The notes under the pieces: model-generated
What the model was told of the DNA's origin: nothing
Databases searched by the model: none
What the model saw: the letters and a program-made list of their open reading frames with translations, nothing else
In this document: positions 15,494 through 59,242 of the stretch, piece by piece
Numbering within the stretch: position 1 is the first letter of the stretch
Layout of the letters: each line of letters opens with the position of its first letter
Made by a program: the position numbers and the translations under genes
Source of the DNA: a virus
DNA: 64,000 nt
Virus record (IMG/VR): IMGVR_UViG_3300025655_000022
Span: 23,178-87,177 of that record
Direction: 5' to 3' (one strand)

Positions 15494-18400
15494 TCACTCG
15501 CCTCTGAAGAATCGTGCTGGAGTTGTTTGTTGTTTTTGCAGTGCAATACCATTGGTTATATACCATATTAAATTATATGGATGGCGTAAAACGCTACCTC
15601 GTGATTGGTCTTGTACTGAACTAGACGCGGCGTGTCTTTGAGTTGCTGTACCGGCTGTGCCTCTTCTGAGTCCACTGATGGTGTTATTGATTGTATCGCG
15701 TGTTCTGTAGGTAATCCTTTCACCATTAATATTAACTACACCAAAGATACCTGCCGGAAGATTGGGTTCGCCCAGCTTGCTTGCGTCATCAACATACACT
15801 GTGTCATGCCAGGGTTCCAAATCTTGCACAAGTTCAGTTGTATTATCACGTATAATACGGTATACTGCTGCATTCCCACGCATATCGTTAAAAATTCTGA
15901 ATGACAATTCATCAGGAACAACACTATTAGTAAATGTGGTAATAGCAACCACATCAATTGAACTGATCGCACCTCCTGATAAAAGAATAGCAGTGCCATC
16001 GTTTGATAAAACAAAATCTTCACCTGCTGTCAATCTGCGTCCATTGAGTGTTACCCAGATTCGGTCAGCATTTTCAATTGTTCGATATAGTTCAAAAATA
16101 TTGACCGTTGAATCAACACCAATAGTATAGTCAAACGGTACACTATCGAAACCAAAAACGTCCATCCCTTCTGATACTGGAAGTTCAATTACTTTGGGTC
16201 CTTGATACACCACAGTGAGTGCATCTTGTTGTCTGATATCTCTGAATGTAGTCACTGCGATAACATCCCCAGCACTCAAGACAATACCAGAGCTTACAAT
16301 TTTTAATTCATTATTGATGTTGTTAACTGTATAGTCAGCCGATCCAGTAACATAGACATCCACCGTATCGCCAGCATCAGGAGTTACTGACATGATAACA
16401 TACCGTTCAGAACTTTCATCGTTAAGTGATACAGCATAATCGCTGCCCAGTGTTTTCTTTTGGTTGTTTATGTATACAACTACTTCTGAATCAGCAATTA
16501 ATGTCTGATCAGTTCCTGTGCGGATGCCATCTGGGAAATAAAACTCCACAGTTGTACCATCACCGATGTGTCGAATGCCTTCGCTAGGGCGCAATCTTCG
16601 TCCATTGAGTTCAACGATGATATTATCTCTGGCTGAGCTTTCGATATTACCAGAAATAATAAAACTGGATGTGGTTCCGTCTGAAACAAATATTTCTGTT
16701 TCAGGATAACTATATCCATAATCGATTAATGATGAATCTGATTCAAGAATTTGTTCACCAAACAAAGTTACAACTATGAAATCATTGCCAGTGTATGTTG
16801 TGCTGAAAATAAATTCAGTTTCGCCAACCACGGTTTCAGAATAGCTATATGCGGTGGTTTCAATACCATTTATCAGGATCAATGCCTGATCAATGTCGTT
16901 AACATCCACTGGCACAGTTATTCGATTTCCAATCTTATCGCCGATATAATTTTTTCTGAATATCTGATGTCCGCCGCCAATCTCATAAACATAAATCTTT
17001 ACTACTTGGCCGGACGATACACCAGAAGTTACTGTGATTGTTCTGTTTACCCAGTTGATGGTATAATTTCTGTTATTATACAACCTATCACCAGTGGTAC
17101 CATTGAATACCACCAATTCCACAGGATGTTCAACAATTCCAGCAAAACTAAAGGTATCTCCGCCATCATAAACATATGATATGCCTTTGATCTGTGACGC
17201 ATGCCCATTGCCAGTATAATCATGCCCAGGTCTGGTTCTGACTGTCATATCAAGTGTATCAAATATTGCGCCAGGTACTAATTCTTCTGGAGCATGTGAA
17301 CTATATTCATCAATAAATGCCCCACCATCTACATTGATGTCTTCAGCACGTGTTCCGATGTAGATATCTGTAAACAAACTGCTGTATTCTGTGTCTAATA
17401 TGGCATCACTATATGTGGGTAATCCTTCAGGACCATAGTCAATATTATCAAATGGTGTAATATCAAAATTTCCAATATCATAACCAGTGTTATCACTAAA
17501 GTTTGTGCTTTGTACTTGTACACCTGGATAATCGATTCCATCGATCAGCAAAGCCAAATCCAATCCAGGATTGTTTACATCAGCAACATAAAAACCGGTA
17601 GTACGATCAACACCGCTCAGTGTGGATGCATTTACCAGTTCATAATTTTCTGGATCAAATGTTGATTCCTGAATTGAGCTACCATCTGCTAAACTTACGC
17701 GATACACACGGTCGTTATAGCGCACCAATTGATCTTCATTGTAAACCGTATCTGGCGTCCAATCCACTATCTGGCTCTGATATTCATAGCGATCATACTT
17801 GATTGTAGTCTTGATGTTTCTGACCAGATCGTTTTTCATGTACACGGTAGTACGTGCGCCAGTGCCATTTCCACCAGTGATTTCTATGATCGGGGTTGTT
17901 CTGTATCCATATCCTGCGGTTGAAATTTGAATTTCAGTAACCTGTCCTACAGAATTAATCAGCGCAACTGCTTGTGCTGGCTGCGTGGCATCTCCAATAA
18001 TGTTAACGGTGGGTGGTACTGTATATCCAGATCCAGCATTGGTTATAACGATTTCATCTACTGCGAGCAGATGATTATCATACCAGTCTGACCAAGGTAT
18101 GGTATCCCATACACTATCAGTGGATAAACGATTGCTTGGATCTGTTTCCAGAGCAGCAAACCCATCATCTAGAATTGGACTTACATATTTTTCATAAACC
18201 GAATCATACGCCGCAGGATTATCAAAATCAGTTGCGCTGCCATCATATAAGTCAATACCTTCATATTTTAATAAGAAGTCTTTAATCTTAACGTGATATG
18301 GTTTAGCCTCTTCAATATAGTTTTGCACAAATGTTTGGTTGTCTTTTCTGTAAACATTGTACTTTTCAAGATTTCTGACTTTGTGTTCGACGTCGATTAA

Positions 18401-21400
18401 ACTAGTCTTAAACAACCAATCAATAGATCCTTGTTCAGATAAGATATAATTAAACATCATGACCAAAAGTTGATTTCTTTGCGCAATGGAATTCCCAACA
18501 AATAGCTCTTCATTAATTGCTTTGATTATTTGTCGAGTTTCTATAACTGGTTCTTGATCAAAATATTGTGCATCAAAGATCTCAACATCAAACCCATAAA
18601 ATCCTGTGTTTGCATAATCCCACAGTGCGTCACTTAACCGGATTGTGCCTCGTTGAGTGCCCACTCTGGTCCAACCACTTGTGCTATTATAATTGTAGAG
18701 TTCCCAATTGCCGGTACTGTTAACATTAACTTTTACTAGCGTGTCATCAGGCACTGTTAACGCAAGAAGCTCACTATATGTGCTGACAATTCTTGATGGT
18801 TTGGATAAGCTATTGTATCCATCTGCATACCAATCAGTATAATCCCAGTACTTGGTTGTGTTATAATTTTGCACTCTGATTAACATCAAAGACAGATCAG
18901 CTTGCACCTGATATATGGTCCATAATCCATTGTTGCTACTGTCAGATTCAACCAATATCCTGTACCCAGAGCCAACCAATTGTAAATTTTGATAGCTTAA
19001 TTCTGAAAGATCAGCAACACGGTCGTCATATGCTCCGGAAGAACTGGACGGAATAGGATCTTTGCTACTTAAAATATTAAACGCAGTTAACTCAGCATAT
19101 GGTTGTTGCGCGAGCAACAGATTTGCATTCGTGATGTAAATTTTTAATGCTGCTAACCGATCAACAAACAGACTTCTTCTGGGTCTGAATTCAACACCAT
19201 ATCTATCGTCAGGTGATAATCCAATGTCCGGCACTTTGTTACCAAGTGTGTCTGTGCCACAAAAACTGTCTTGAAGTTTTCGATATATGCTATCAGACAA
19301 GAAATCTTTTGGTCTCTGTTCTCTGATTAAATCATACTCAACAAATACTTTGTTTTCATTAAAATTTTGATTGTACTCAATATGCAAAATACTATTGGAC
19401 TCATCCACATATTCATTAACATTATACAGAGCAACAACATTTTTTCTCATCATTGCTGCATATGGGATTCCTGAACTTTGTGGATTTTGGATATAAGATG
19501 CAATTGCAGTAGCACTCAGTGTTTTTCCTAGCTTTCTGTTAACTGTGGTGTAATCTTTGACCCAGAAATAATATCGTGTGGTGATTGTTCTGGTCTGATC
19601 CAGTCCACTGATAACTGTGTATTGATTGATGTCTTTAACTGTTCCTGTACCGGTGTATTGTGCCGGCGGTACTGAGCTTTCAATCCATTCATAAACATCA
19701 ACACTACTACCATCTGCTAGTGTACCCCAGTTTTTAGAACTATAAACTAAATCTTGTTGATTGTAATTCACAAACCTTGCATTAGTGGTATCCCACCAGA
19801 TTGTTCCAGTTTGACTGGCTGCCCAATATGTTCCATTGTTATTAACACTATATGATGCTGGGTCCACTGCACCAATAATATCAATATTTTGTTGTGCAGC
19901 ACCCAGAATTTTTCCATTTACTGGGTCAATAAAGTCCAGATATGCTTTGACTGCTTGTGTGTTTGCATCATAAATGTAAACAGCATCAATTAAACGATGA
20001 TCAACTTTTGTTGGCTGTTCCTGAATTGGTTGCCATGCAGCAGATCCGGTTGAACTTGCAAAAATTGTTAGTCTGCCAATGTTAGTCAGTGCGGTATCGT
20101 AACCTGGGCTGGTAACCAAAAGAAGATTATCAGTAAAATCAACAGCCGTTCCAAATCCATCCAATTCTTTGACATCTGGGCTGAAGATCTGTTGGCCAAA
20201 CACAAATTTTCCAGGTACATTATAATTTGAGCTAGGTAGCAGATCGAACGTAAACACCGCACCACTGTCAGGCACAACATCTGATAAGTTAGTGGTGTTG
20301 CTATCAAACGTTGTATTGGATGAATCAAACACAATTGGAATAAACGCACTGGATTTTTTAGCACCAACAACTAGATTGGTTGCACTATAATCAACATGAA
20401 TACTTGAGCCGAACTCACTGTATTCTTCTGGTCTTGGACTCACAATTGTTTGTGTTAATTCATATGGTTGTAACCCCAGTGTTTCAAATGCAGTGCCCTG
20501 ACCTGGCATCACTGTCATTTTAGAAAGCAGCGGTGATTCATTGATATTAATGTTACTAATTCTGAGCTTATTATCGACAATAGATGCCTGAACATTTGGA
20601 ATAACTGCTGAATTGATATCAGATACTATTTGATTTAATGATGTTCCAGTAAATTGTACATCAATATTGTCAATTCTAATAGTTTCACCAACAGTCACTG
20701 ATGGATTGACAACGGTACTATCAATATATCCAAACACTCTGGTTCTGCTAACAAATCTGGCAACACTGCCTGCTTCAGGAAGCAAGGTATTATCTTTTGG
20801 TGAGCTCACATACACAGAACAATCAGTTCTGCAAACACCAAGTGCTGAGCCGAAATAAGCACTCTGGTTGGATTTTTCTGCCGTTAGCGTCTGTACTAAC
20901 TGAAATTGATTAACATCAATATCAATCAAATCGCCTGTATTTAATACTGTGCTTGCATCAACGGTAATACTGTTTGAACCAATATCAATACTATAATTTG
21001 AATCAACATTGTTGATCGAATTAATTTGTTTTACTCTGTTGATTCTAACTGCGTTAACTGCATCGATTGATCTTCTGGTTGGATATCTCAATGTATTTTT
21101 GTTAGTTACAACAAATCGTTCCACTATGCGTTCGTATACATAGGTTTTTCCTGCGAAACTTTGTATTTCGCCATCAACAATGTTTGTTGCATCAGGTGCA
21201 CCAATTATTACTTGCTGTCCATCACTAGTAGTCTTGACTGATCTACCAAAATCTTCGTTGGACGATCTAGAAATTTTACCAACATATCTGAAATAATCCT
21301 GTGCTCTGATTGATATTATTGTACCAGAAGATGGGGCAACTGTAAACGTTATTTCTTTTGTGGAATCGTTAAATGTATAATCGTAATATGGACGTAAAAG

Positions 21401-24400
21401 AACACCATTAATATCTACACTAAATGAATCAATGGTTGTGGCTGTATATAGTTCAGTTATATCAAATGTAAGTGTTGATCCATCACCAGACGGTGTTGTT
21501 GTGTTTTTTCTGGTTACGCTAATTTGTGTTCCTGATGCTGGTGCACCATAAAAAATTAACGTTGTGCCAGACAAATAATAACCGGTACTGCTCTGAACAA
21601 CGTCGTTGAACGAAACTGTTAATTGTTCTGCAGCATTGATTTTTAGATCAGTTGACAGATCGTATTGTGTGGTCTGACCGTCTGCTATAAATGTGGCTGT
21701 TTGATTTTGATATACAATCTTTTCATATGCATACACACTTTCGATGCCAGTAGCACTTACATATATCCAGTTTTCATCCTCGCTGATTGCCACAGCCGCA
21801 CCAAACTCTTGAGATTGGTCGCCTTGATCTGATACCGGAAGTGTCAAGTACTGCCAATTTTGGAAAATGTCCTGGCTTGGATTTCTATAAATTACAGTAG
21901 CCAAACCTTGGCCACTGATACTCAAGCTGGCGCCAGCTACACCCCAGTTTTTAGAAATTGCCACAGCGTTTCCATAACCCTGTGCTTTGTTCGAATCCAG
22001 GGTCAACACACTATCAAATACATATGTGTTGGCGTCTTTGTTGTAACAATAGACACCGCCGCTGGCATTCTGTCTGTCGGTATAATTAGTAGCACCAATT
22101 ATAGCACCATAACCATCAAGTGCTTGCGCTAGACTTATTCCAAAATTGTAACTATCAGTAGCACCAGGCGCAGTAGTATTTTGTTCTAAACTAAACGGTA
22201 CCTTTTTCTCATACACTTTCCATTTGCCGTTTATGTCAGCATCAACCCAAACTTTATCGCCCTGGATTAAATTACTATTATATTCTGTGTTTGCAATATC
22301 ACTTGCTTGATCGACTCTGGCTGTAGTAAGTTTGAATACAATCCCATTTCCTGTTGCAACTGATGTGCTTCCTGCAAGTGACCCAGCCACAGTAACCGAT
22401 TTTGTGTCTTCGATTGTTAGAATTTGATGGGCGCCATTGACCGTATCGTCAAAATATTTGATAATTATTAGTTCATCTCTATGTAAATCAACAGTCAAAT
22501 CAAATTCCAGTGTCAGTGTTCCATTAAGGTTATCGATCACTGACACAAGTTTTGGATTGTCTTCACGAACTCGATAGTCAATTGTTGTTGGCTCATCGGG
22601 ATACACAAACATTGATTGTGATCTTAATAAGCTACAACGATAAACATCCCAATTATATTTGTTAGATTTAACAACCCACACATATGCGCCATCGCGAACT
22701 TTGTCTAATTGTTCTGTTAAGGATGTTAAATCATCAAGATTAAAAATTGAAACATCTATATCATCACTGTTGACATATCCTGCACTAGGAAATGAAACGT
22801 CGGTTATAACTTCTGTTAATTCTGGAAAAATGTTTGTGGTTGTATTTTTGTTGCTTTGTTTATAGATATTATCGATCTGAACCAATTGATCTGCAACAGT
22901 ATCTACACCTAATGTATTGACTTCAATAATACTAGGATTGGTTTTAATTAGTTGCTCATCTAATGAAAATTCCACAAATCGCTTGTTATCATTTGCACCA
23001 TAAGTTGCACGCTTGATAGCCCAGTTTTCATAAATGTTATATTCGGCCAGATCTTTATCAAAAGTTACACCTTGAAATAATTTAACGCTCGATGGTGTTC
23101 CTTTATGATTGACAAGATCGCCATATATGTTGATTTGACTTAAATCACTAATGTTAAGACTTTCCAAATAATCTCGGGGGCGGAATCCGGTAATTCCAAA
23201 TGCAAGCAAATCAACATCGCTTTCCAGGTTAGCAGTTGTGTTATTATAGTATTTTGTCATTTGATCAGCTTTATTGCTGATATTAGGGAGCATTCCTTTG
23301 TTGATTAAATCATAATCAACTTTAATCCAGTCGTCGTATTCAAATGTTTCTGTTGGTTGTAATTTTTCAAATGCCGACCAATATGAATTTTTATATTTGA
23401 CAATGTCGCCTTTGTTGTAATTTACATTAGCGTTCCAATCAGATACATTATCCTGATTGATAATAAATCCTTGAGCATCTAGTTGCCCGTTCCATTCAAA
23501 TGTGGTAAATCCATCAATTTTGATTCGTTGTTGTCTGAGACCAGTTACTGGCTGATATATCAGATCATTAAAGATGCTAACATTGTCCATGATCAACAGA
23601 TGTTCGTAGCTGGTGCTTCTCAATCTCAAGTAACTTAATGATTTGTCAGCCAACATGACCAGTTTGAATTGATTATCCAACCGAACAACTGAGAAATCAT
23701 CTGATTTTAATGGCTGTCTGTTCTGATCAAGCGGACGTTCATTAATTGCCAGATTATTTAAATTATCGACTACTGATAATGGACGCTGGTGTTTTAATAC
23801 ACTTGCTGAAGGGTTGATGTTGATTAAACTTCCGGCAACCCAGTTCTGGTCAGCCCAGTAAACAAACTCTTGTGCCATTTGCGTCCAGGTTAGGATAATA
23901 TTGTTTTCAACATCATCAAATGTCATGCCAGCTGCTTCTAGAAAAGCACCATAACTCACTAAGAAATCAACAACACTGTTAATACTTGCAAATGTATATC
24001 CATAAGGAACACGAACTACTCTGGAAGTAAACTTAGTTGGGATCCTTATTCTGGTTGTCCCTACTGTGATTGTTTCAAAGTCTCCGCTGGTGGAACTTTC
24101 TAGAATACGGAAATATGCTTCTGTCTGACTATTACCATACACTGCATATCCATTTTCTGTGCGTTGAATCATTACACTGGAAAACTGAATATCAGCAAAC
24201 GACTGATTTTTGTAAAGCAACAGATCATAACTTTCATCAGGTATTAGCAGACTTGTGTTAGAACTATCTGGGCTGCTCTTGTCTGTGAAGATTTTAAGAT
24301 ATTTTTTATCTGTGAATGCCCCCATGCGATATGCAAGTCTGACATCTAGCTCAGATATTTCAGTTTTTAAACCATCGGTATCAGGTATTCCAGTACTACG

Positions 24401-27400
24401 GTTATATTCAGCAATCCAGTCGATATAACTGTGCTTTGGCGTTGTATTATTGTAAACATCAATGGTTCTGACATCCAATCGGTATCGTCCAGCGTAAGCA
24501 TATTGACCTAATGTGGTGCCATATGTGTATGAATCTCTGTCTATGCCCAGTGCAAAATATTCAGCTGGTTTTGTTAGAGCAAACAATTTTTGCACAGCAA
24601 ACGGCCAAGAGCTTGAACGTCTCCATGCATTTTCTGCCGGACCAACGTCTCCGGCAATCCAGCTTTTCTTAAAATCACTCTGGTTATAACTTGCAACTAT
24701 AAATTCAAATGGATTTTTTAGTTGGCCTTCGCTATCTACAGGAATGATAGATGATAAACCAGTACGAGCATATCTGCTATCATATGTATCAGTACCTCTG
24801 ATATATCCGGCTTCTAGATCATCCCATAAAATTTGGTTTCCTGAAGTATATGGTGCTGGACCATATTCTGTTTCCCACCATGATGGTTGTTCACTAAATC
24901 CAAGCATTTCCCAGGGATTGGTGTGTGGGCGATCAGTGTCATAATAATTTTTATATATTCCTCTCCAGTTTCCTTTGAGCGGAGTATTGTCCAGTGCAGA
25001 TCCGGCCCGGCCATAATTCCAGGTCCATTCATTAGCAGAAGAATAATTCTGAGTCTTGTAATCAATTTTATGCCAACCTACCCAGTTCAATAACTCTGCG
25101 GAAAGAATTTCAGTAATTTCTGCATCAGTATAGTCTGTGTTTCTGAACTTTCCAGGCAATACATCACTTAGTACGATTGGAATATCTGGATTGACTTTTA
25201 TGTTATTGTATATTCTTTTTTCAAATTCTAAAAGTACATAATCTCGTACGTCATTAAACCCGATGTATATACTACCATCGTGTCCCTGGATTACAGTCTG
25301 ATCCTCGACATAGGTGTTATCAACATATATCTTAGGTTCATATTTTGGATATAAGCCCATTTTGGTTGGAGTTTCAGGAATAAAATTACCCAATGTAGAC
25401 GAATATTCTCTGACTTTTAAAAGATCTCCAGTTTGTGTTTGTGTTAAAATAGTAATTCTGGGACCATCAGTCTCCACAGAATAATCATAATCTTTGAGTA
25501 ATAATGTGTCGTTCAGATAAACCAGTAGTCCCTGCTGGTTGGCTGATGTAAAATCATATACATTGTTTGTATTAAACGTTCCGGTCGTTATCGGTGTAAT
25601 CTGATGAATGGTCTCAACATAGTTACTACCTGTAGGAATCATGTCGCTCCAGAAGAATGTGGAATCATTGGATTTACCAGAATTAATTTCAGTCAGTGCG
25701 GCATCGAGAATTTCACCATGAGTCATACCATAGGTGTCATTGTTATTAACCCAATCCAGTATCAAGTATTTGATTTTTTCGTATTGTGTGCCAACGTACT
25801 GTAATGCACCAAAGAGATCGTACTTTTCTTTGCGCAGGAAAAATGCCGCGGGCGTTACTGGGGCCGAGTGTTGGACAATGATATCTCCATAATGACTAAT
25901 GTCTCCCAGATCACGCAAGTTATTGGCACCATTAATAATACCATCAAATGCAATAATATTTTCGGCCAAACGATTGAAATGGTTTCTGACTGTTCCCAGA
26001 GTTATTGTGTTAGCATTTTCATTGAACGGATTGCTTTCCAGGCTATTGGGAATTTCGTAATATCCAATACCACTGGCCTCGTCGCTAATAATTTTAACCT
26101 GCACCATTGTGCCTGCAGATACTGTATTTGGTTTAAATGTAACTGTGGCTGGTGAATTAACTGTGACTATGTAATTGTCTGGGTCAATGAACTGGTTGTT
26201 TGCATATACTTTTATTCCAGGCACTGTGATATCAGTTCTGGGTGCAATATCCAGCAACAATGGTTTACCCTGATACTCGAATGTGAATACCTGGCGTTGC
26301 CAGTTACGGTCAACACTAGTTGTCCAACCAATTTTGTTTTCGTATTCTGTTCTGGATGAATATTTTCTTACAAATCCATCACTGACTTGTTTTTGAGTTC
26401 GTGTACTATTATTTGCATACACGAACGTGTCCGAATATTGATTGTTTTCAAATACAATATCACCCAGATTGTCGATGTTTAGATATGTTAGAGGAAAACC
26501 TAATACAGGATCATTTCTGCCTGATCCTTGCTTATAAGAAAATAATTTACTTCCGGTGAATGTGTTACTTGGGTAGGCTGCCATATCTCCAAAACTATAC
26601 CCATTGCTATCAAAAACATCAAACAATGGAGCCTGGTTGGTCTGTGTCTTTTGTTGTGCTTCAATCCACGCAGTCCCGGTATACCTGAACATCTTCCCTT
26701 GTAAAGTATTACCGCTCAGACATAGCACAGTGTCGTCTGTAACAACTTGTGTATCGTCGGCCGGAACCAGGTTTATGATATTCCCATATTCTGTACTGAG
26801 ATCATCAGGATCAACAATTTGTACAGTGTAGATTCGATTGCGCACAGATGCATTACTGTCGGCGGCAAAAATTATTCTGGTACCATTGATTAATTGATAT
26901 CCATCAACAAAATATCCAGTACTTCCGTTAACGTTTGATAATGCATCTACCTGTGTTAAATCAATTATGTCCACAGGTTGTTTTGCTTGTGTGCCATGAT
27001 TAAACAATCTTAATCCAGCATTAAATTCAATAATGGGGCGTTTGGCTTGCAGATCGCTATCAAAATTTGCGACACTGTTGTTGTATTCTGCGGTGGCTAG
27101 AATTACATCTCGATGGAACCAACGATTGTAGCGACTCCAGGCATTTGAGTCTGCTGAGTTTCTTTTGATTGTCAGATAATCAGGATCTAAAGGAGAATTA
27201 AAACTGCCATCAAATCCCAGCGTATCGAATGGTGATAAATCAAACAACTCTGAATCTGTGTTAACAAATGTTTCCGGGGTAACCAACTCTGAAACTGGAA
27301 TCAATTCAATGCTGTGACCTACACCTTCTACAATGTATTCATTGTTTTGATAAAAACTGGGCTCAGTTACACTTGCAAATCTTATTTTTAATCCGTTGGT

Positions 27401-28735
27401 AAACACTACTCCATTTGGACTGGTATAGGTTTGTTTTCCAAGAATATCATCGACATTGATGACTGCATCAGATTCTGGATCTACCAGTTGAATAACACCG
27501 AAACGCAGAGGATTCACACCATCCTGATAGTATAAAATGTTATCAAGGGCAGTTAGTTGAGGAATTTTTTCAAAGAATCCAGATGCGTTTTTATAATACT
27601 GAACGTTGCTGTATTCTGCACCACTGCCAATCTTAAACTTATCATTAATATTAATATCACTAATTTTGACCAGTTTTATAAATGTACTGCCGTTTAGTTC
27701 TACATAAGTGATTCTGTATAATCCATACCTCTCATCTTGATCGGTAATGTATCTGGTGGGTTCAAATACAATTTCAGGATATGGAGCACCCTGATCAAAT
27801 CTGGACGAATCATATGGAGTATAATCAACCCAACCCAGATCTTCGGGATCACCTGCCTGCGTATTCAAAAATACCAGCGTCTTGCCTTCAAGATCAGTAA
27901 TACCATCAATGTTATCTACCAAAGAAACCAATCTGTTGTGAATGCTATCAAATCTGTCCATGGTAGCCAGATCTATTGTGCCAATATTATTAAGACCATA
28001 ATAAAAATTTTGATCGGTTGATTTTGGAACATTAAACGTAACTGTGCCTACATCATCACCGTTATTGACTACGCCTAGTACATCACGGCTACTTAAATTA
28101 GGCGAAAAGTTAAGTGTGCCATCTGTGCCTGATTCTGATTGAATCCAGAATGGATTTCCTGGTTGATTAACATTAAATGTGTATGACCCACCTCTGACCA
28201 ATGTAATAGTTGGGTTATCACCAACCAATCCACTTATACCATAATAACTTTCCTCAGTAGCAGATACATCAAAATCATCAATCAATGCAGCACTTCCAAC
28301 ATTCACATCAACTGCATCTGGGCCGGTAGGAATCCAATAATACTGGCTGTAATTGATGAATTTATCAAAATCAATATTTGGATCCCAGCTATACGTCTGA
28401 CTGGCAAACAATCTGTCTGCACGAGATGTGTTTGCTCCTTTAACATCAAGAGCATCTAGCATGCCAACATATGTCATTGCATCTGTGACATTTCCATCAT
28501 TGTCTTTGAATGCGACAGCTGGTTCAAATTGATAATTTGCACGCTGTAATGATGGTTCTAGAACATAACCATCGTTAAAGTTAGTACCAGGCCCGAATCT
28601 ACGGCCAACGTAACCTTGTGTACGTTTTAGCTTTGGTTGTTGAATTAGCTGATCAAGGGTAGCACCAAGAAATTCCCGATTTGCATCGGTTTTGAAAATT
28701 TCAGGCAAAAAGTCAACTGATCTGATGCGTGCCAT
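15494..28735 (-). CDS. Giant virion structural protein, 4413 aa, with seven-bladed propeller-like region
   Basis: One uninterrupted 13.2 kb frame, 3 bases after gp6, where T4 has gp7. The N-terminus (SVDFLPEIFKTDANREFLG) and extreme length match giant virion proteins of aquatic T4-like phages. Visible modules are: a WNANVNYNKGDIVKYKNSYW segment near residues 1765-1790, like CBM5/12 aromatic carbohydrate-binding modules; seven FG-GAP-like repeats at about 2190-2895; a second W...Y..D.LVRYND.VYRV module near 3655-3680; and many C-terminal repeats of a beta module (NGRRLRPSEG, LNGRRLTAGED). The end has a RI.YRTRD...I.GLRRGT.GT segment common in fibres. It is probably a baseplate-periphery or host-adhesion protein; orthology to gp7 is not shown. 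Confidence 0.75.
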   Translation of the reverse strand: MARIRSVDFLPEIFKTDANREFLGATLDQLIQQPKLKRTQGYVGRRFGPGTNFNDGYVLEPSLQRANYQFEPAVAFKDNDGNVTDAMTYVGMLDALDVKGANTSRADRLFASQTYSWDPNIDFDKFINYSQYYWIPTGPDAVDVNVGSAALIDDFDVSATEESYYGISGLVGDNPTITLVRGGSYTFNVNQPGNPFWIQSESGTDGTLNFSPNLSSRDVLGVVNNGDDVGTVTFNVPKSTDQNFYYGLNNIGTIDLATMDRFDSIHNRLVSLVDNIDGITDLEGKTLVFLNTQAGDPEDLGWVDYTPYDSSRFDQGAPYPEIVFEPTRYITDQDERYGLYRITYVELNGSTFIKLVKISDININDKFKIGSGAEYSNVQYYKNASGFFEKIPQLTALDNILYYQDGVNPLRFGVIQLVDPESDAVINVDDILGKQTYTSPNGVVFTNGLKIRFASVTEPSFYQNNEYIVEGVGHSIELIPVSELVTPETFVNTDSELFDLSPFDTLGFDGSFNSPLDPDYLTIKRNSADSNAWSRYNRWFHRDVILATAEYNNSVANFDSDLQAKRPIIEFNAGLRLFNHGTQAKQPVDIIDLTQVDALSNVNGSTGYFVDGYQLINGTRIIFAADSNASVRNRIYTVQIVDPDDLSTEYGNIINLVPADDTQVVTDDTVLCLSGNTLQGKMFRYTGTAWIEAQQKTQTNQAPLFDVFDSNGYSFGDMAAYPSNTFTGSKLFSYKQGSGRNDPVLGFPLTYLNIDNLGDIVFENNQYSDTFVYANNSTRTQKQVSDGFVRKYSSRTEYENKIGWTTSVDRNWQRQVFTFEYQGKPLLLDIAPRTDITVPGIKVYANNQFIDPDNYIVTVNSPATVTFKPNTVSAGTMVQVKIISDEASGIGYYEIPNSLESNPFNENANTITLGTVRNHFNRLAENIIAFDGIINGANNLRDLGDISHYGDIIVQHSAPVTPAAFFLRKEKYDLFGALQYVGTQYEKIKYLILDWVNNNDTYGMTHGEILDAALTEINSGKSNDSTFFWSDMIPTGSNYVETIHQITPITTGTFNTNNVYDFTSANQQGLLVYLNDTLLLKDYDYSVETDGPRITILTQTQTGDLLKVREYSSTLGNFIPETPTKMGLYPKYEPKIYVDNTYVEDQTVIQGHDGSIYIGFNDVRDYVLLEFEKRIYNNIKVNPDIPIVLSDVLPGKFRNTDYTDAEITEILSAELLNWVGWHKIDYKTQNYSSANEWTWNYGRAGSALDNTPLKGNWRGIYKNYYDTDRPHTNPWEMLGFSEQPSWWETEYGPAPYTSGNQILWDDLEAGYIRGTDTYDSRYARTGLSSIIPVDSEGQLKNPFEFIVASYNQSDFKKSWIAGDVGPAENAWRRSSSWPFAVQKLFALTKPAEYFALGIDRDSYTYGTTLGQYAYAGRYRLDVRTIDVYNNTTPKHSYIDWIAEYNRSTGIPDTDGLKTEISELDVRLAYRMGAFTDKKYLKIFTDKSSPDSSNTSLLIPDESYDLLLYKNQSFADIQFSSVMIQRTENGYAVYGNSQTEAYFRILESSTSGDFETITVGTTRIRIPTKFTSRVVRVPYGYTFASINSVVDFLVSYGAFLEAAGMTFDDVENNIILTWTQMAQEFVYWADQNWVAGSLININPSASVLKHQRPLSVVDNLNNLAINERPLDQNRQPLKSDDFSVVRLDNQFKLVMLADKSLSYLRLRSTSYEHLLIMDNVSIFNDLIYQPVTGLRQQRIKIDGFTTFEWNGQLDAQGFIINQDNVSDWNANVNYNKGDIVKYKNSYWSAFEKLQPTETFEYDDWIKVDYDLINKGMLPNISNKADQMTKYYNNTTANLESDVDLLAFGITGFRPRDYLESLNISDLSQINIYGDLVNHKGTPSSVKLFQGVTFDKDLAEYNIYENWAIKRATYGANDNKRFVEFSLDEQLIKTNPSIIEVNTLGVDTVADQLVQIDNIYKQSNKNTTTNIFPELTEVITDVSFPSAGYVNSDDIDVSIFNLDDLTSLTEQLDKVRDGAYVWVVKSNKYNWDVYRCSLLRSQSMFVYPDEPTTIDYRVREDNPKLVSVIDNLNGTLTLEFDLTVDLHRDELIIIKYFDDTVNGAHQILTIEDTKSVTVAGSLAGSTSVATGNGIVFKLTTARVDQASDIANTEYNSNLIQGDKVWVDADINGKWKVYEKKVPFSLEQNTTAPGATDSYNFGISLAQALDGYGAIIGATNYTDRQNASGGVYCYNKDANTYVFDSVLTLDSNKAQGYGNAVAISKNWGVAGASLSISGQGLATVIYRNPSQDIFQNWQYLTLPVSDQGDQSQEFGAAVAISEDENWIYVSATGIESVYAYEKIVYQNQTATFIADGQTTQYDLSTDLKINAAEQLTVSFNDVVQSSTGYYLSGTTLIFYGAPASGTQISVTRKNTTTPSGDGSTLTFDITELYTATTIDSFSVDINGVLLRPYYDYTFNDSTKEITFTVAPSSGTIISIRAQDYFRYVGKISRSSNEDFGRSVKTTSDGQQVIIGAPDATNIVDGEIQSFAGKTYVYERIVERFVVTNKNTLRYPTRRSIDAVNAVRINRVKQINSINNVDSNYSIDIGSNSITVDASTVLNTGDLIDIDVNQFQLVQTLTAEKSNQSAYFGSALGVCRTDCSVYVSSPKDNTLLPEAGSVARFVSRTRVFGYIDSTVVNPSVTVGETIRIDNIDVQFTGTSLNQIVSDINSAVIPNVQASIVDNKLRISNININESPLLSKMTVMPGQGTAFETLGLQPYELTQTIVSPRPEEYSEFGSSIHVDYSATNLVVGAKKSSAFIPIVFDSSNTTFDSNTTNLSDVVPDSGAVFTFDLLPSSNYNVPGKFVFGQQIFSPDVKELDGFGTAVDFTDNLLLVTSPGYDTALTNIGRLTIFASSTGSAAWQPIQEQPTKVDHRLIDAVYIYDANTQAVKAYLDFIDPVNGKILGAAQQNIDIIGAVDPASYSVNNNGTYWAASQTGTIWWDTTNARFVNYNQQDLVYSSKNWGTLADGSSVDVYEWIESSVPPAQYTGTGTVKDINQYTVISGLDQTRTITTRYYFWVKDYTTVNRKLGKTLSATAIASYIQNPQSSGIPYAAMMRKNVVALYNVNEYVDESNSILHIEYNQNFNENKVFVEYDLIREQRPKDFLSDSIYRKLQDSFCGTDTLGNKVPDIGLSPDDRYGVEFRPRRSLFVDRLAALKIYITNANLLLAQQPYAELTAFNILSSKDPIPSSSSGAYDDRVADLSELSYQNLQLVGSGYRILVESDSSNNGLWTIYQVQADLSLMLIRVQNYNTTKYWDYTDWYADGYNSLSKPSRIVSTYSELLALTVPDDTLVKVNVNSTGNWELYNYNSTSGWTRVGTQRGTIRLSDALWDYANTGFYGFDVEIFDAQYFDQEPVIETRQIIKAINEELFVGNSIAQRNQLLVMMFNYILSEQGSIDWLFKTSLIDVEHKVRNLEKYNVYRKDNQTFVQNYIEEAKPYHVKIKDFLLKYEGIDLYDGSATDFDNPAAYDSVYEKYVSPILDDGFAALETDPSNRLSTDSVWDTIPWSDWYDNHLLAVDEIVITNAGSGYTVPPTVNIIGDATQPAQAVALINSVGQVTEIQISTAGYGYRTTPIIEITGGNGTGARTTVYMKNDLVRNIKTTIKYDRYEYQSQIVDWTPDTVYNEDQLVRYNDRVYRVSLADGSSIQESTFDPENYELVNASTLSGVDRTTGFYVADVNNPGLDLALLIDGIDYPGVQVQSTNFSDNTGYDIGNFDITPFDNIDYGPEGLPTYSDAILDTEYSSLFTDIYIGTRAEDINVDGGAFIDEYSSHAPEELVPGAIFDTLDMTVRTRPGHDYTGNGHASQIKGISYVYDGGDTFSFAGIVEHPVELVVFNGTTGDRLYNNRNYTINWVNRTITVTSGVSSGQVVKIYVYEIGGGHQIFRKNYIGDKIGNRITVPVDVNDIDQALILINGIETTAYSYSETVVGETEFIFSTTYTGNDFIVVTLFGEQILESDSSLIDYGYSYPETEIFVSDGTTSSFIISGNIESSARDNIIVELNGRRLRPSEGIRHIGDGTTVEFYFPDGIRTGTDQTLIADSEVVVYINNQKKTLGSDYAVSLNDESSERYVIMSVTPDAGDTVDVYVTGSADYTVNNINNELKIVSSGIVLSAGDVIAVTTFRDIRQQDALTVVYQGPKVIELPVSEGMDVFGFDSVPFDYTIGVDSTVNIFELYRTIENADRIWVTLNGRRLTAGEDFVLSNDGTAILLSGGAISSIDVVAITTFTNSVVPDELSFRIFNDMRGNAAVYRIIRDNTTELVQDLEPWHDTVYVDDASKLGEPNLPAGIFGVVNINGERITYRTRDTINNTISGLRRGTAGTATQRHAASSSVQDQSRGSVLRHPYNLIWYITNGIALQKQQTTPARFFRGE
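20060..22152 (-). repeat. Seven FG-GAP-like repeats (beta-propeller) within the giant virion protein
   Basis: Seven segments with the pattern F/YG.(S/A)(V/L/I)...., a hydrophobic strand, then GA/SP occur at residues about 2196, 2250, 2307, 2492, 2624, 2773 and 2858. Examples are YNFGISLAQ, EFGAAVAISED, DFGRSVKTTSDG, YFGSALGV, EFGSSIHV and GFGTAVDF. Seven such blades would close one integrin-like propeller. Small beta modules are inserted between blades 3 and 4 and between 4 and 5. Confidence 0.6.
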
Positions 28736-45040: not shown

Positions 45041-46798
45041 ATGATAACAATTCGCACATTAACCGTTAAAAACTTTATGAGCGTAGGCAATGCTACGCAA
45101 GCAGTTCATTTTGACCGCAATGATCTAACCCTGGTGTTAGGTAATAATATGGACTTAGGTGGCGATGGCGCTCGTAATGGCACAGGTAAGACTACTATTA
45201 TTAACGCACTTTCGTATGCGTTTTACGGTGTAGCACTGACTAACATTAAACGAGATAACTTAATTAACAAAACAAATTCTAAAGGCATGCTTTGCTCTGT
45301 AGAGTTTGAGTACGCTGGCAAAGAGTACAGAATTGAGCGTGGGCGCAAGCCTAACGTATTAAAGTTCTATATTGAAAATGAAGAACAAGAATCAACAGAT
45401 AACGCCCAGGGTGATTCGCGAGAAACACAAAAAGCTATTGAGGAATTGCTAGGTATAAGCCACACTATGTTCAAGCATATTGTGGCTTTGAACACGTATA
45501 CCGAACCTTTCCTCAGTATGCGGGCCAACGATCAGCGTGATATTATCGAGCAATTGCTTGGCATCACATTGCTCACCGAAAAAGCAGAGCAACTAAAAGA
45601 GCAGTCTAAAAATACAAAAGACCTCAAAAAAGAAGAAGAGTTGCGTATTCAAGCAGTTATGGATGCTAATCAACGTATTCAAGATCAAATCGATTCGGTT
45701 AGACGTCGGCAACGTATGTGGTTAGATAATCAACAAAAAGATGTTGCCGATTATGAAGCATCCATTGAAGCTCTTGAACACATTGATATTGAAGCAGAAG
45801 TAAAAGCGTTTGCTGAAATTGATGCATATAACGAAAAGAAAACACAAATTGATACACTACAAGTATATCAAACCTCAATCGACGCCGAGAATAAGCGTCT
45901 TGGAACTAAAATTCAAAAATTAGAAAAAGAAATTGCTTCACTAAAGGATCACAAGTGTCATGCGTGCGGTCAAGAGTTACACGATGCTAAACATGAAGAA
46001 ATTTTAGCAGACAAAGAAGGCGATCTACAACAAGCAGCACTTCAAATTGTTACCAATGAAGGTCAATGGGACGAAGCACATCAAGGATTACAAGCACTAG
46101 GCGAACTTGGATCAAAGCCGCAAACGTTTTATAAAACATTACAAGAAGCATTGGAGCATAAAAATACACTAGAAACTGCTCGTGCGCAGCTAGAAACACG
46201 TCGCAATGAAACAGACCCATATAGTGAGCAAATTACAGAAATGGAAGAACAAGCGTTACAAGAAGTTTCATATGATCGTGTAAATGAGTTAGCACATTTA
46301 CAAGAGCATCAAGAGTTCTTGCTTAAATTGCTCACTAACAAGGATTCGTTTATTCGTAAAAAGATTATTGATCAGAATCTAGCGTATCTAAACTCTCGGT
46401 TAACGCATTATCTTGACAAAATTGGATTAAGACATACAGTACAGTTCTTAAATGATCTTTCTGTAGAAATTACCGATCTAGGACGAGATTTGGATTTTGA
46501 TAACTTATCGCGTGGTGAACGTAACAGACTTATATTAAGTTTGTCATGGGCATTCCGTGATGTTTGGGAATCTCTATACCAACCAATTAATGTTGTATTT
46601 GTTGACGAGCTAATCGACAATGGACTAGATTCGCAAGGTGTTGAAAACGCATTAGGTATCTTAAAACACATGACTCGCGAGCGTTCTAAGAGTGTGTGGC
46701 TTGTTTCGCACAAAGATGAACTTATTGGACGTGTACACAATACATTAACAGTAGTAAAAGAAAACGGGTTCACAACATACGATACAACCGATGCCTAA
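45041..46798 (+). CDS. 46: Recombination endonuclease subunit gp46 (Rad50/SbcC-like ATPase)
   Basis: The 585-residue protein has the Walker A GARNGTGKTT at residues 43-52, long coiled-coil arms, a zinc hook CHACG (C306, C309), the ABC signature LSRGERNR near 489-496 and Walker B NVVFVDEL near 516-523. With gp47 it forms the Rad50/Mre11-type complex that resects DNA ends. The length matches T4 gp46 (560). The stop overlaps the next start by 8 bases (46791-46798), so the nuclease gene is coupled. Confidence 0.92.
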   Translation: MITIRTLTVKNFMSVGNATQAVHFDRNDLTLVLGNNMDLGGDGARNGTGKTTIINALSYAFYGVALTNIKRDNLINKTNSKGMLCSVEFEYAGKEYRIERGRKPNVLKFYIENEEQESTDNAQGDSRETQKAIEELLGISHTMFKHIVALNTYTEPFLSMRANDQRDIIEQLLGITLLTEKAEQLKEQSKNTKDLKKEEELRIQAVMDANQRIQDQIDSVRRRQRMWLDNQQKDVADYEASIEALEHIDIEAEVKAFAEIDAYNEKKTQIDTLQVYQTSIDAENKRLGTKIQKLEKEIASLKDHKCHACGQELHDAKHEEILADKEGDLQQAALQIVTNEGQWDEAHQGLQALGELGSKPQTFYKTLQEALEHKNTLETARAQLETRRNETDPYSEQITEMEEQALQEVSYDRVNELAHLQEHQEFLLKLLTNKDSFIRKKIIDQNLAYLNSRLTHYLDKIGLRHTVQFLNDLSVEITDLGRDLDFDNLSRGERNRLILSLSWAFRDVWESLYQPINVVFVDELIDNGLDSQGVENALGILKHMTRERSKSVWLVSHKDELIGRVHNTLTVVKENGFTTYDTTDA

Positions 46799-47426
46799 TA
46801 TTTTTAATTTGAGTCAAATTGACGAGTATCAGCTTGAAATTACTGCGTGGGTAAATTACAATTTTGAGCAGAATATATTACAAGGTATAAGTAAGCACGT
46901 GCCAAGTCCACAGAAAGCAAAAGGTAGTAATTGGGAAAGAGATGTTGCTAGACGACTTTCTGAAATCTACAATGAAACCTTTATTAGAGTTCCAGGATCT
47001 GGTGCGTATGTAGGCGGCTTAAATGCTGCTCGCAAAGAATTTTTACACGAAGGCACTATACGAGTCCTTAAAGGAGACATTGTTCCTCCGTTAAGTTTTC
47101 CTCGTTTTAATGCTGAGTGTAAAAGTTATAAAGAATTTCCGTGGCATCAACTATATACAGGCGACTGCAAAGTTCTTGACGGTTGGATAACTCAGTGCTT
47201 GGATGCAGCGGACGAAGGCGACGTGAATTTATTATTCATGAAGTTCAACCGTAAAGGCACATTTTTGGCATTTGAAGACAGGCATAAGGCACATTTTAAA
47301 ATAGAAAATTACACCTGTTACAGTCCATTATCAGAGTCCCTGGGAGGACCTTGGATCGTAACAGATTTGGGCACATTCTTAGGCATAAGGCAAAACACAG
47401 ACAAACTGAATGAGTTGTGTGCATAA
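46791..47426 (+). CDS. PD-(D/E)XK nuclease-type protein (possible Holliday junction resolvase)
   Basis: The 211-residue protein begins inside the end of gp46. Its nuclease core is KGSNWERDVARRLSEIY (E49), RVPGSGAYVGG, then GDI (D96) and ECK (E109, K111), the E...D...ExK pattern of archaeal Hjc-like resolvases and related nucleases. Position after gp47/gp46 fits a DNA recombination or repair role. T4 uses the unrelated endonuclease VII for branched DNA, so this gene could supply a different solution, but function is inferred. It is followed by the non-coding region at 47440. Confidence 0.6.
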   Translation: MPNIFNLSQIDEYQLEITAWVNYNFEQNILQGISKHVPSPQKAKGSNWERDVARRLSEIYNETFIRVPGSGAYVGGLNAARKEFLHEGTIRVLKGDIVPPLSFPRFNAECKSYKEFPWHQLYTGDCKVLDGWITQCLDAADEGDVNLLFMKFNRKGTFLAFEDRHKAHFKIENYTCYSPLSESLGGPWIVTDLGTFLGIRQNTDKLNELCA

Positions 47427-47439
47427 CACAATACTAAAT

Positions 47440-48116
47440 CGTTAAAAGTCTAGCTTGGGGCGGTTAATACAAGCGGTAACACTCTCTGTTGTGAGGAGGA
47501 CACCTAAATCGTGGGTAACGACACGGACATCAATCACTATCCTTAACAGGACGCTAACACGACATGCCTGTGAACTTTGTAACGCTTATTTGTAGTTCAC
47601 TAACGTGTTTGATCGATGTATGGCAACACAAAAAGGCTAAAAGATGCTGCTCTGTAAAAAAAATCAACAGCAAGTTTGCATATAGCGGGCAATTAGTTAT
47701 ATGTAAACTCCCGTCAGAATAAAGTCTAGAGTAGGGGGTACCGGCTGACCGCCTCCGCAAAATGATCATTATAAAATACATTTTAATCTCTTATAATTGC
47801 TGGCTAGCTCACTCGACGAAAGATGAATTAGTTTAACTTTACCCTCGGATGGGTAAAGTTTGACCAGTCTATCTGACGAAATATGTTCAAGAAAACATAT
47901 TAAATTTATTTCACTTACATATTGATATCACACTATTACATAATATTCAGAGTCTTAAAAAATAAGATTGAGCGTAAGCGAAATCTTAGATATGCGTAGC
48001 ATATCTCCTGATATTAAATCTATTGTGTGATATGACAAAATTCTGATATTTGGAAACACATTTTCTTATTCATGCGTTCATGAAAAAGCCCCTAGCTTTG
48101 GCATACCAGGGGCTTT
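47440..48116 (+). ncRNA. Candidate large structured non-coding RNA
   Basis: The 724 bases from 47427 to 48150 carry no supported gene and are dense in paired elements. A 9-bp helix joins 47457-47465 (GGGGCGGTT) to 47747-47755 (GACCGCCTC). Inside it are a two-part stem (47556-47561/47604-47609 with 47570-47576/47594-47600) and an H-type pseudoknot at 47673-47713. The 3' part has hairpins at 47835-47860 (AACTTTACCC/GGGTAAAGTT) and 47881-47900, and a 9-bp stem 47925-47933/48025-48033 enclosing a GNRA hairpin with tandem G-A mismatches and an 8-bp hairpin. The terminator at 48085 would end it. Size and style recall giant phage RNAs such as GOLLD, but family membership is not shown. Confidence 0.6.
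48085..48116 (+). terminator. Bidirectional terminator ending the non-coding region
   Basis: AAAGCCCCT (48085-48093) pairs with AGGGGCTTT (48108-48116) around a 14-base loop. It lies between the rightward block and the leftward gene ending at 48151. The T-runs are short on both strands, so strength is moderate. Confidence 0.65.
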
Positions 48117-48150: not shown

Positions 48151-48483
48151 TTATGCAAATGTGTCTGGCCAGTCTCGATAATATGCGTGTTTGATATCCT
48201 CTACAAATTGATTAAACGATTTGTGTTTGGTTTCCAGTTCACCTTCCAGAGGGGCTACACGCTGAAACGCCTCTTCTAATTGTGCCATGTTCTTGAATTC
48301 CATCATGATATGCCATTCAGGCAAATCAGGAATACTTGCGAAACCCATTTTGCAACGAGTAATGCGATAGCCTTCGCATTTTCCTTCAGATTTCAGATGT
48401 TCTAAAAATCCTTTCATGTTGTTAACCCAATCGATATCCGAAATATCCGTGGACTTTTCAGCCCAAATATGATAAATGTCCAT
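48151..48483 (-). CDS. DUF6614-like small protein of unknown function
   Basis: The 110-residue protein fits a compact family remembered as DUF6614 from bacteria: MDIYHIWAEKSTDISDIDW, FLEHLKSEGKCEGYRITRCK, EWHIMMEFKNMAQLEEAFQR, and a final YYRDWPDTF. It has a ferredoxin-like alternation of strands and helices. The function of that family is not known. In a phage it would be a transferred host-type gene. It starts one base into the stop of the gene at 48483 (TAATG), so it is coupled. The family assignment is from memory and needs a profile search. Confidence 0.5.
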   Translation of the reverse strand: MDIYHIWAEKSTDISDIDWVNNMKGFLEHLKSEGKCEGYRITRCKMGFASIPDLPEWHIMMEFKNMAQLEEAFQRVAPLEGELETKHKSFNQFVEDIKHAYYRDWPDTFA

Positions 48484-48905
48484 TATGTTCTTGGTCCTAA
48501 AATTTCAAATCCGTCAATTTGACGTTTGTATTCGGTAGCTTCGCCTAAGTACAAATAGTCAAACCCTCTACTTTTATAAAACGCACATTCACTTCGTAAG
48601 CTAGAAATTCCTAAATGTAGCTTAGGATTTTGATAATCCCATGCAAATTGAATGGCTTCTACATTTTTATTATTATAAACACGCATTAAGCTAAATGCAA
48701 CCAATTTATCTTGATCATAATATCCTAGAACATCATTTGTGAAATATTCCTCGGTAAAAATAGGCATTACAGATCGGAATTTTTTATGAGCACAATATGT
48801 ATTATAAATGCGCTCTAATTCAATTGGATTTGGATTTACAATAAATTCAAAATTATCCAAAATGCTGTAATTGGTATCTGCCAGTCGTATACGGGCATAT
48901 ATCAT
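48483..48905 (-). CDS. GNAT-like acyltransferase, arginyl-transferase C-terminus type
   Basis: The 140-residue protein reads GYYDQDKLVAFSLMRVYNNK, then AIQFAWDY, LGISSLRSECAFYKSRG and FDYLYLGEATEYK. The order of a strand, a helix starting with small residues and YLYLGEA resembles the C-terminal GNAT half of arginyl/leucyl-tRNA protein transferases. It could be a small aminoacyl or acetyl transferase, but the N-terminal half of that family is absent, so the activity is unknown. ATGA overlap with the upstream gene at 48902-48905. Confidence 0.5.
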   Translation of the reverse strand: MIYARIRLADTNYSILDNFEFIVNPNPIELERIYNTYCAHKKFRSVMPIFTEEYFTNDVLGYYDQDKLVAFSLMRVYNNKNVEAIQFAWDYQNPKLHLGISSLRSECAFYKSRGFDYLYLGEATEYKRQIDGFEILGPRT

Positions 48906-58527: not shown

Positions 58528-58534
58528 ATAAATA
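58528..58534 (+). promoter_or_regulatory. T4-type late promoter (CATAAATAAT)
   Basis: ATAAATA lies 14 bases after the gp23 terminator and 73 bases before ATG 58607. The flanks (CATAAATAAT) match the late promoters on the other strand. It would restart late transcription for the fibre block. Confidence 0.65.
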
Positions 58535-58606
58535 ATATTGTTCATAGTAACTTATGCAGTTTTGCCACTGCGTATGGCCTAGAACGTCACATTAAGGAGA
58601 AAACAA

Positions 58607-59242
58607 ATGGCAAGAGCATTAAAAACACAAAAAACCAACACAGTTGATTCTGGTTTTCCATGGGTTGATCTGTACAATATTGGCGTAGTTGGTGGTAACA
58701 CTGCATTAACTGGTGCACAAATCAAAACTCGCGTTAAAATTGGTTCTGCTTCTGAAGCAGACGGTTACATTATTCGTCAGAAAGGTGCCAAGAAGTTTTT
58801 GGTAACTGACGCCGCTAGCGTAAGTGCTGGTAGCTTTGTTGTCGGCCAATCATATATCGTTTTGACAGCAGGCAATACTGATTTCCAGGCAATTGGCGCT
58901 GATGCATCCTATGCAGCAGGTACAATTTTTACTGCAACTGGCGCTGGTACTGGTACTGGCACAGCAGCTCGCGTGGGCACATGTGTGCTGAGCGATCTGG
59001 CAGATGGTAGCTTGACCGCAGATACCATGACTGTGTCTGTTATTGAAACAGATTCAGGTGTAATTCGTCTGGCACGTATCAGCAACAAATGGGGCGTCGG
59101 CTTCGATGGTGTACAACGTGCATTATCATTCACTGACTTTGCTGATTCATCCGTGGGCACACAAGCTGAAACTATTAAATCAGGTACCAAAGATCTGTAC
59201 GTGGAAATCGTTCAGGTTGATAACGATTATACCTGGGGTTAA
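58607..59242 (+). CDS. Virion-associated protein with Gly/Thr/Ala repeat, unknown role
   Basis: The 211-residue protein contains a GSFVVGQSYIVLTAGNTDFQ module followed by AIGADASYAAGTIFTATGAG and TGTGTA, a module found in many aquatic phage virion proteins. The outer parts (SGFPWVDLYNIGVVGG; ARISNKWGVGFDGVQRALSF) look like a separate beta domain. A decoration-type or head-associated protein is plausible because it directly follows gp23, but this is inferred. A GGAG ribosome site precedes the ATG. Confidence 0.55.
   Translation: MARALKTQKTNTVDSGFPWVDLYNIGVVGGNTALTGAQIKTRVKIGSASEADGYIIRQKGAKKFLVTDAASVSAGSFVVGQSYIVLTAGNTDFQAIGADASYAAGTIFTATGAGTGTGTAARVGTCVLSDLADGSLTADTMTVSVIETDSGVIRLARISNKWGVGFDGVQRALSFTDFADSSVGTQAETIKSGTKDLYVEIVQVDNDYTWG

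What the first reader, a model, noticed from the sequence alone, without database searches (positions are those of the whole stretch)
47440..48116. Roughly 690-nt gene-free region that looks like a large structured RNA
Seen: no supported ORF in 724 bases, in a genome otherwise packed with genes. There is a 9-bp long-range helix (47457-47465 with 47747-47755), a two-part stem (47556-47609), further perfect hairpins, a pseudoknot, and a terminator. Two short repeats, AAAGTCTAG (47445 and 47721) and CTAAATCGT (47434 and 47504), frame the 5' domain. Known: some phages carry giant ornate RNAs such as GOLLD and ROOL of 500-800 nt. Inferred: this is a large phage RNA downstream of the recombination genes; it may be a GOLLD-type or a new class.
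Basis: partly seen in the sequence, partly recalled or inferred. Interest (0 to 1): 0.82.

Follow-up and report, generated by a model that had tools for sequence, protein, structure and literature searches.

The report
Large structured RNA of freshwater phages
The gap between genes encodes a roughly 570-base folded RNA found in hundreds of T4-like phage contigs and in mobile islands of Polynucleobacter; only its first quarter was catalogued before, and it carries two identical seven-base tags that have changed together many times in evolution.

Summary
Its first ~140 nt match Rfam RF01718 Polynucleobacter-1 (32.7 bits, below the gathering score of 37; near relative L046 scores 38.5). Three capped IMG/VR scans gave 322 loci with relatives over about 570 nt, four times the Rfam model. 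Covariation supports 14 helices, three of them pseudoknots; in the window 15 of 16 helices tried pair throughout (P5 has one mismatch). The carriers are T4-like phages (Gp23 capsid in 19 of 20 records); the RNA usually follows a SegE-like GIY-YIG gene after gp46/gp47. It also occurs in 12 of 151 Polynucleobacter genomes, in an integrase island, mostly with a phage clamp-loader-like gene (candidate satellite). Strangest feature: two 7-nt direct repeats around a hairpin are identical in 281 of 285 loci, yet changed at least 74 times on a tree of 174 RNAs, with no complement in the RNA and no enriched target in 11 phage records. Most likely a trans-acting scaffold showing one recognition tag twice to an unknown partner. 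Identity is secure; mechanism is inferred.

The parts
47439..48006 (+). The structured RNA, P1 to P14, about 568 nt; transcription may run on to the terminator at 48116
   Evidence: profile match L001 E 6.8e-49 (profile includes this sequence); covariation; window pairing
47448..47582 (+). Part matching Rfam RF01718 Polynucleobacter-1 (model 1-141 of 141)
   Evidence: 32.7 bits, E 3e-5, gathering 37; relatives 38-115 bits
47439..47521 (+). P1 pseudoknot: 47439-47444 with 47516-47521, the latter inside the P4 loop
47453..47474 (+). P2 hairpin 47453-47457/47470-47474
   Evidence: 97% paired
47510..47525 (+). P4 hairpin 47510-47513/47522-47525
47528..47618 (+). P5 stem 47528-47536/47610-47618 (one internal mismatch in the window), with P5a (CTATCCTTAACAGGACG), P5b 47557-47561/47604-47608 and P5c 47570-47576/47594-47600 (an insert also seen in close relatives)
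   Evidence: (P5 97.7%, P5b 98.2% paired)
47646..47671 (+). P6 hairpin 47646-47649/47668-47671
47673..47709 (+). P7 hairpin 47673-47684/47698-47709; its loop forms PK2
47689..47800 (+). PK2 pseudoknot: P7 loop 47689-47695 (GCAATTA) with 47794-47800 (TAATTGC); TTAGCG/CGCTAA in many relatives
   Evidence: 95.6% paired
47713..47749 (+). PK3 pseudoknot 47713-47717 (GTCAG) with 47745-47749 (CTGAC), the latter inside the P10 loop
   Evidence: 97.5% paired
47734..47756 (+). P10 hairpin 47734-47738/47752-47756
   Evidence: 99.8% paired
47815..47821 (+). X7 direct repeat copy 1 (GACGAAA, context ACTC-X7)
47835..47860 (+). P11 hairpin between the repeats, 47835-47844/47851-47860
47875..47881 (+). X7 direct repeat copy 2 (GACGAAA, context ATCT-X7)
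47964..48006 (+). 3' twin hairpin: P13 47964-47969/47982-47987 enclosing GAGCGTAAGCGA, and P14 47988-47995/47999-48006
   Evidence: P14 96.2% paired; the motif followed by a second hairpin is seen once per genome, after the RNA, where found
48085..48116 (+). Terminator-like hairpin 48085-48093/48108-48116, facing a convergent gene
46791..47426 (+). Upstream gene: PDDEXK_15 / RusA-like nuclease, in the place where most relatives have a SegE-like GIY-YIG gene

Best explanation
This is a trans-acting noncoding RNA of about 570 nt encoded by T4-like phages: the full-length form of what Rfam holds as the 141-nt Polynucleobacter-1 motif. Shown by comparison: a multi-pseudoknot fold, and a 3' domain that shows the same seven bases, unpaired in the consensus, twice, on both sides of a hairpin. 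Inferred: it is transcribed with or after the recombination operon, stays as a stable RNA, and uses the two identical tags to bind two copies, or two subunits, of one partner. The partner is most likely a protein, or an RNA from outside the phage genome, so the RNA would work as a scaffold or decoy. The tag is switched often while both copies are kept identical, as expected if partner specificity is under changing selection.
For: RF01718 match. Relatives in 322 of 348 loci. Double-changed cells 311 vs 108 shuffled and 54-83 slid in the 5' domain, 304 vs 119 and 65-97 in the 3' domain; each of 14 helices exceeds all 100 shuffles on 175 sequences. Window helices pair. Tags identical in 281 of 285 loci, spacing 47-79 nt, with fixed different flanks, CTC/G vs TCT/A. 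At least 74 changes on a tree of 174 RNAs, 170 pairs identical. No complement in the RNA (8 vs 14 expected); own tag not enriched in 11 phage records or their start regions. Downstream neighbours differ and bacterial copies lie beside other genes, which argues for an independent RNA.
Against: No expression data, no partner found, no biochemical test. Tag variants show no excess association with the adjacent GIY-YIG protein, so the obvious neighbour is not supported as partner. No own promoter is evident in the window (promoter-like sites no more than in shuffles).
Confidence: 0.5

Rival explanations
1. An ornate RNA that assembles with itself (dimer or cage, as GOLLD, ROOL and OLE do); the twin tags are part of an assembly interface rather than a binding site for another molecule.
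For: Similar size, pseudoknot-rich fold and phage home as GOLLD and ROOL, which form homo-oligomers (PMC12286853).
Against: Identical tags cannot pair with each other unless palindromic, and no complementary element was found in the RNA.
Confidence: 0.2
2. An antisense regulator with two identical seeds against one host RNA or one narrow target.
For: Two copies of one short unpaired sequence that change together.
Against: No clear enrichment of complements in phage flanks, genomes or start regions; the host side was not tested.
Confidence: 0.15
3. A cis-acting untranslated element of a neighbouring gene (the table of Weinberg 2010 appears to mark Polynucleobacter-1 as possibly cis-regulatory).
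For: Table entry 'y y ?' in PMC2864571; constant position after the nuclease gene in phages.
Against: Upstream gene replaced in the window lineage and absent in Polynucleobacter; downstream genes differ in strand and family.
Confidence: 0.07
4. The direct repeats act in DNA (binding, packaging or recombination site).
For: Near-perfect direct repeats; the element is shared between phages and islands.
Against: Repeat spacing varies from 47 to 79 nt without helical phasing; pervasive RNA-type covariation around them.
Confidence: 0.05
5. A mobile intron-like ribozyme moving with its GIY-YIG homing nuclease.
For: SegE-like GIY-YIG gene adjacent in most loci.
Against: No intron family match; the RNA lies after the stop codon of the upstream gene; fixed syntenic position; a different nuclease in the window lineage.
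Confidence: 0.03

Closest known systems
Rfam RF01718 Polynucleobacter-1 RNA
   Same: Homologous over the 5' ~140 nt; same Polynucleobacter and fresh-water setting
   Different: The Rfam model stops at 141 nt; P7 to P14, the pseudoknots P1, PK2 and PK3, the twin tags, the T4-like phage home and the nuclease neighbour are not in it
GOLLD RNA
   Same: Very large, pseudoknotted, phage-borne, function unknown
   Different: No covariance-model match; ARAGORN finds no tRNA in the window
ROOL RNA
   Same: Large ornate phage RNA of similar length
   Different: No covariance-model match; different context
Phage satellites and integrative islands (general class)
   Same: The Polynucleobacter copies sit with integrases and usually a phage clamp-loader-like gene
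   Different: Helper dependence not tested; no packaging genes identified

Membership tests
RF01718 Polynucleobacter-1 | Own score at or above gathering (37 bits) | tested here: not met
   Window 32.7 bits, E 3e-5, full model length
RF01718 Polynucleobacter-1 | Homology through relatives that pass the gathering score | tested here: met
   13 of 13 chosen relatives pass, including window-lineage L046 at 38.5 bits. The profile and model that find the window were built with it, so they are weaker support
RF01718 Polynucleobacter-1 | Same conserved structure in the 5' domain | tested here: met
   P2, P4, P5, P5a, P5b pair in the window; covariation
GOLLD | Covariance model match | tested here: not met
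   No match up to E = 10
ROOL | Covariance model match | tested here: not met
   No match up to E = 10
GOLLD/ROOL-like ornate RNA | Homo-oligomer or cage formation | not testable with these tools
   Needs purified RNA
tmRNA / tRNA | ARAGORN or Rfam match | tested here: not met
Group I or II intron | Rfam match | tested here: not met
   No match up to E = 10

The most novel reading that the evidence does not exclude
A new kind of phage RNA machine whose specificity lies in a duplicated, fast-switching 7-nt code that must match in both copies, shared between T4-like phages and integrative islands of Polynucleobacter, so that phage and island may compete for, or cooperate through, the same partner.
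Probability: 0.3. Interest if true: 0.92.

Novelty: new variant of a known kind. Interest (0 to 1): 0.82.

Why it matters
It turns a small orphan Rfam motif into one of the larger known phage RNAs, frequent in IMG/VR contigs and not found by DNA similarity in the isolate-phage collection searched here. The concerted direct repeats are an unusual form of covariation (identity instead of complementarity) that makes the partner question testable by single-copy versus double-copy tag swaps. The shared RNA and clamp-loader-like gene also point to a possible phage-island relationship in Polynucleobacter.

Tried and rejected
GOLLD, ROOL, tmRNA, introns: no match. Internal complement of the tags: none. 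Phage mRNA or start-region targets: no enrichment of the own tag. Co-evolution of the tags with the adjacent GIY-YIG protein: at or near the level of control RNA columns; with gp46 two tag positions lie about 2 sd above the control mean but below its maximum, not followed up. DNA similarity in isolate phages: nothing significant. P9 drawn on L087 aligned badly (49% paired), although MI and the 175-sequence count support it. A T4 late-promoter element upstream of the island copies: TATAAATA in only 2 of 13 copies read; the others have CTAAATA at about that place, read by eye and left as a lead.

Full report
WHAT IS THERE. Between a PDDEXK/RusA-like nuclease gene (46791-47426) and a convergent DUF6614 gene (48151-48483) lies a gene-free stretch. 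Rfam at gathering level gives nothing here, but a permissive scan places RF01718 Polynucleobacter-1 at 47448-47582, full model length, 32.7 bits, E 3e-5. The only paper found here that names this motif has it in a table row (Weinberg 2010, PMC2864571).

RELATIVES. A profile built from the first set finds the RNA in 322 of 348 held loci. Of 13 relatives tested all pass the RF01718 gathering score, and nothing else in Rfam matches along them. Isolate phages give no significant DNA match. An exact-pattern scan of one genome for each of 84,980 bacterial and archaeal species gives two Polynucleobacter hits. A covariance model of the 5' domain (R1) finds it in 12 of 151 genomes of that genus and in 5 of 399 drawn from the family, four of which were already seen in the genus.

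STRUCTURE. Mutual information on 175 non-redundant RNAs and pair counts support P1 (pseudoknot with the P4 loop), P2, P3, P4, P5, P5b, P6, P7, PK2 (P7 loop with a downstream strand), PK3 (strand inside the P10 loop), P9, P10, P11 and P14. Controls: 5' domain 311 double-changed cells against 108 shuffled and 54-83 slid; 3' domain 304 against 119 and 65-97. In the window 15 of 16 helices tried pair throughout and P5 has one mismatch; P3 and P9 were not checked there. The helices were picked from MI and by reading the same sequences, so some selection is built in; the size of the gap to the slid and shuffled controls is the argument.

TWIN TAGS. In the 3' domain, ACTC-X7-G before P11 and ATCT-X7-A after it carry the same seven bases. 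The X7 columns are 98-99% identical between copies, where 50-75% would be expected by chance for the four most variable ones; 281 of 285 loci with both copies have no mismatch (these loci were selected as having at most 3 mismatches); spacing varies 47-79 nt. On a tree built without the repeat columns X7 changes at least 74 times, with 170 of 174 pairs identical (a FastTree tree of a short alignment, so the count is rough). Fixed differences directly beside X7 argue against gene conversion. No internal complement, no enriched target in 11 phage records, no excess link to GIY-YIG residues.

SETTING. In the first scan 99 of 119 loci have the SegE-like GIY-YIG family upstream on the same strand (92 of its members within 400 nt); 7, the window lineage, have the PDDEXK protein. 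T4 major capsid Gp23 is found in 19 of 20 RNA-bearing records. In Polynucleobacter all 13 loci examined have a divergent DUF6641 gene beside the RNA and 12 a small tyrosine recombinase after it; 10 carry an AAA protein whose tested member matches phage clamp loaders (phrog_168, E 6e-25) and is 27-31% identical to proteins in six RNA-bearing phages. A phage satellite is a reasonable but untested reading.

VERDICT. Identity as a large structured RNA and full-length relative of RF01718: about 0.97 by my judgement. Mechanism (two-tag scaffold or decoy): inferred, about 0.5 for the statement as a whole.

Noticed in passing
58533-58609: Rfam RF02980 freshwater-2 RNA above gathering (56.6 bits), directly before the ORF at 58607.
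   Followed up: no
Polynucleobacter loci L372-L384: Recurrent integrase island with DUF6641, tyrosine recombinases, usually a clamp-loader-like AAA protein, and the RNA: a candidate satellite of T4-like phages.
   Followed up: partly
records of L054 (353 kb) and L073 (259 kb): Each holds two copies of the RNA; the second copy in the 259-kb record is very diverged yet keeps matching tags.
   Followed up: partly
48483-48905: Small protein with an arginine-tRNA-protein transferase C-terminal domain match (PF04377).
   Followed up: no
15494-28735: A 4413-aa ORF, not examined.
   Followed up: no
related loci, e.g. L063 and L084, upstream of the RNA: Radical-SAM-like proteins (cysteine motif read by eye) between gp46 and the nuclease gene in many relatives.
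   Followed up: no
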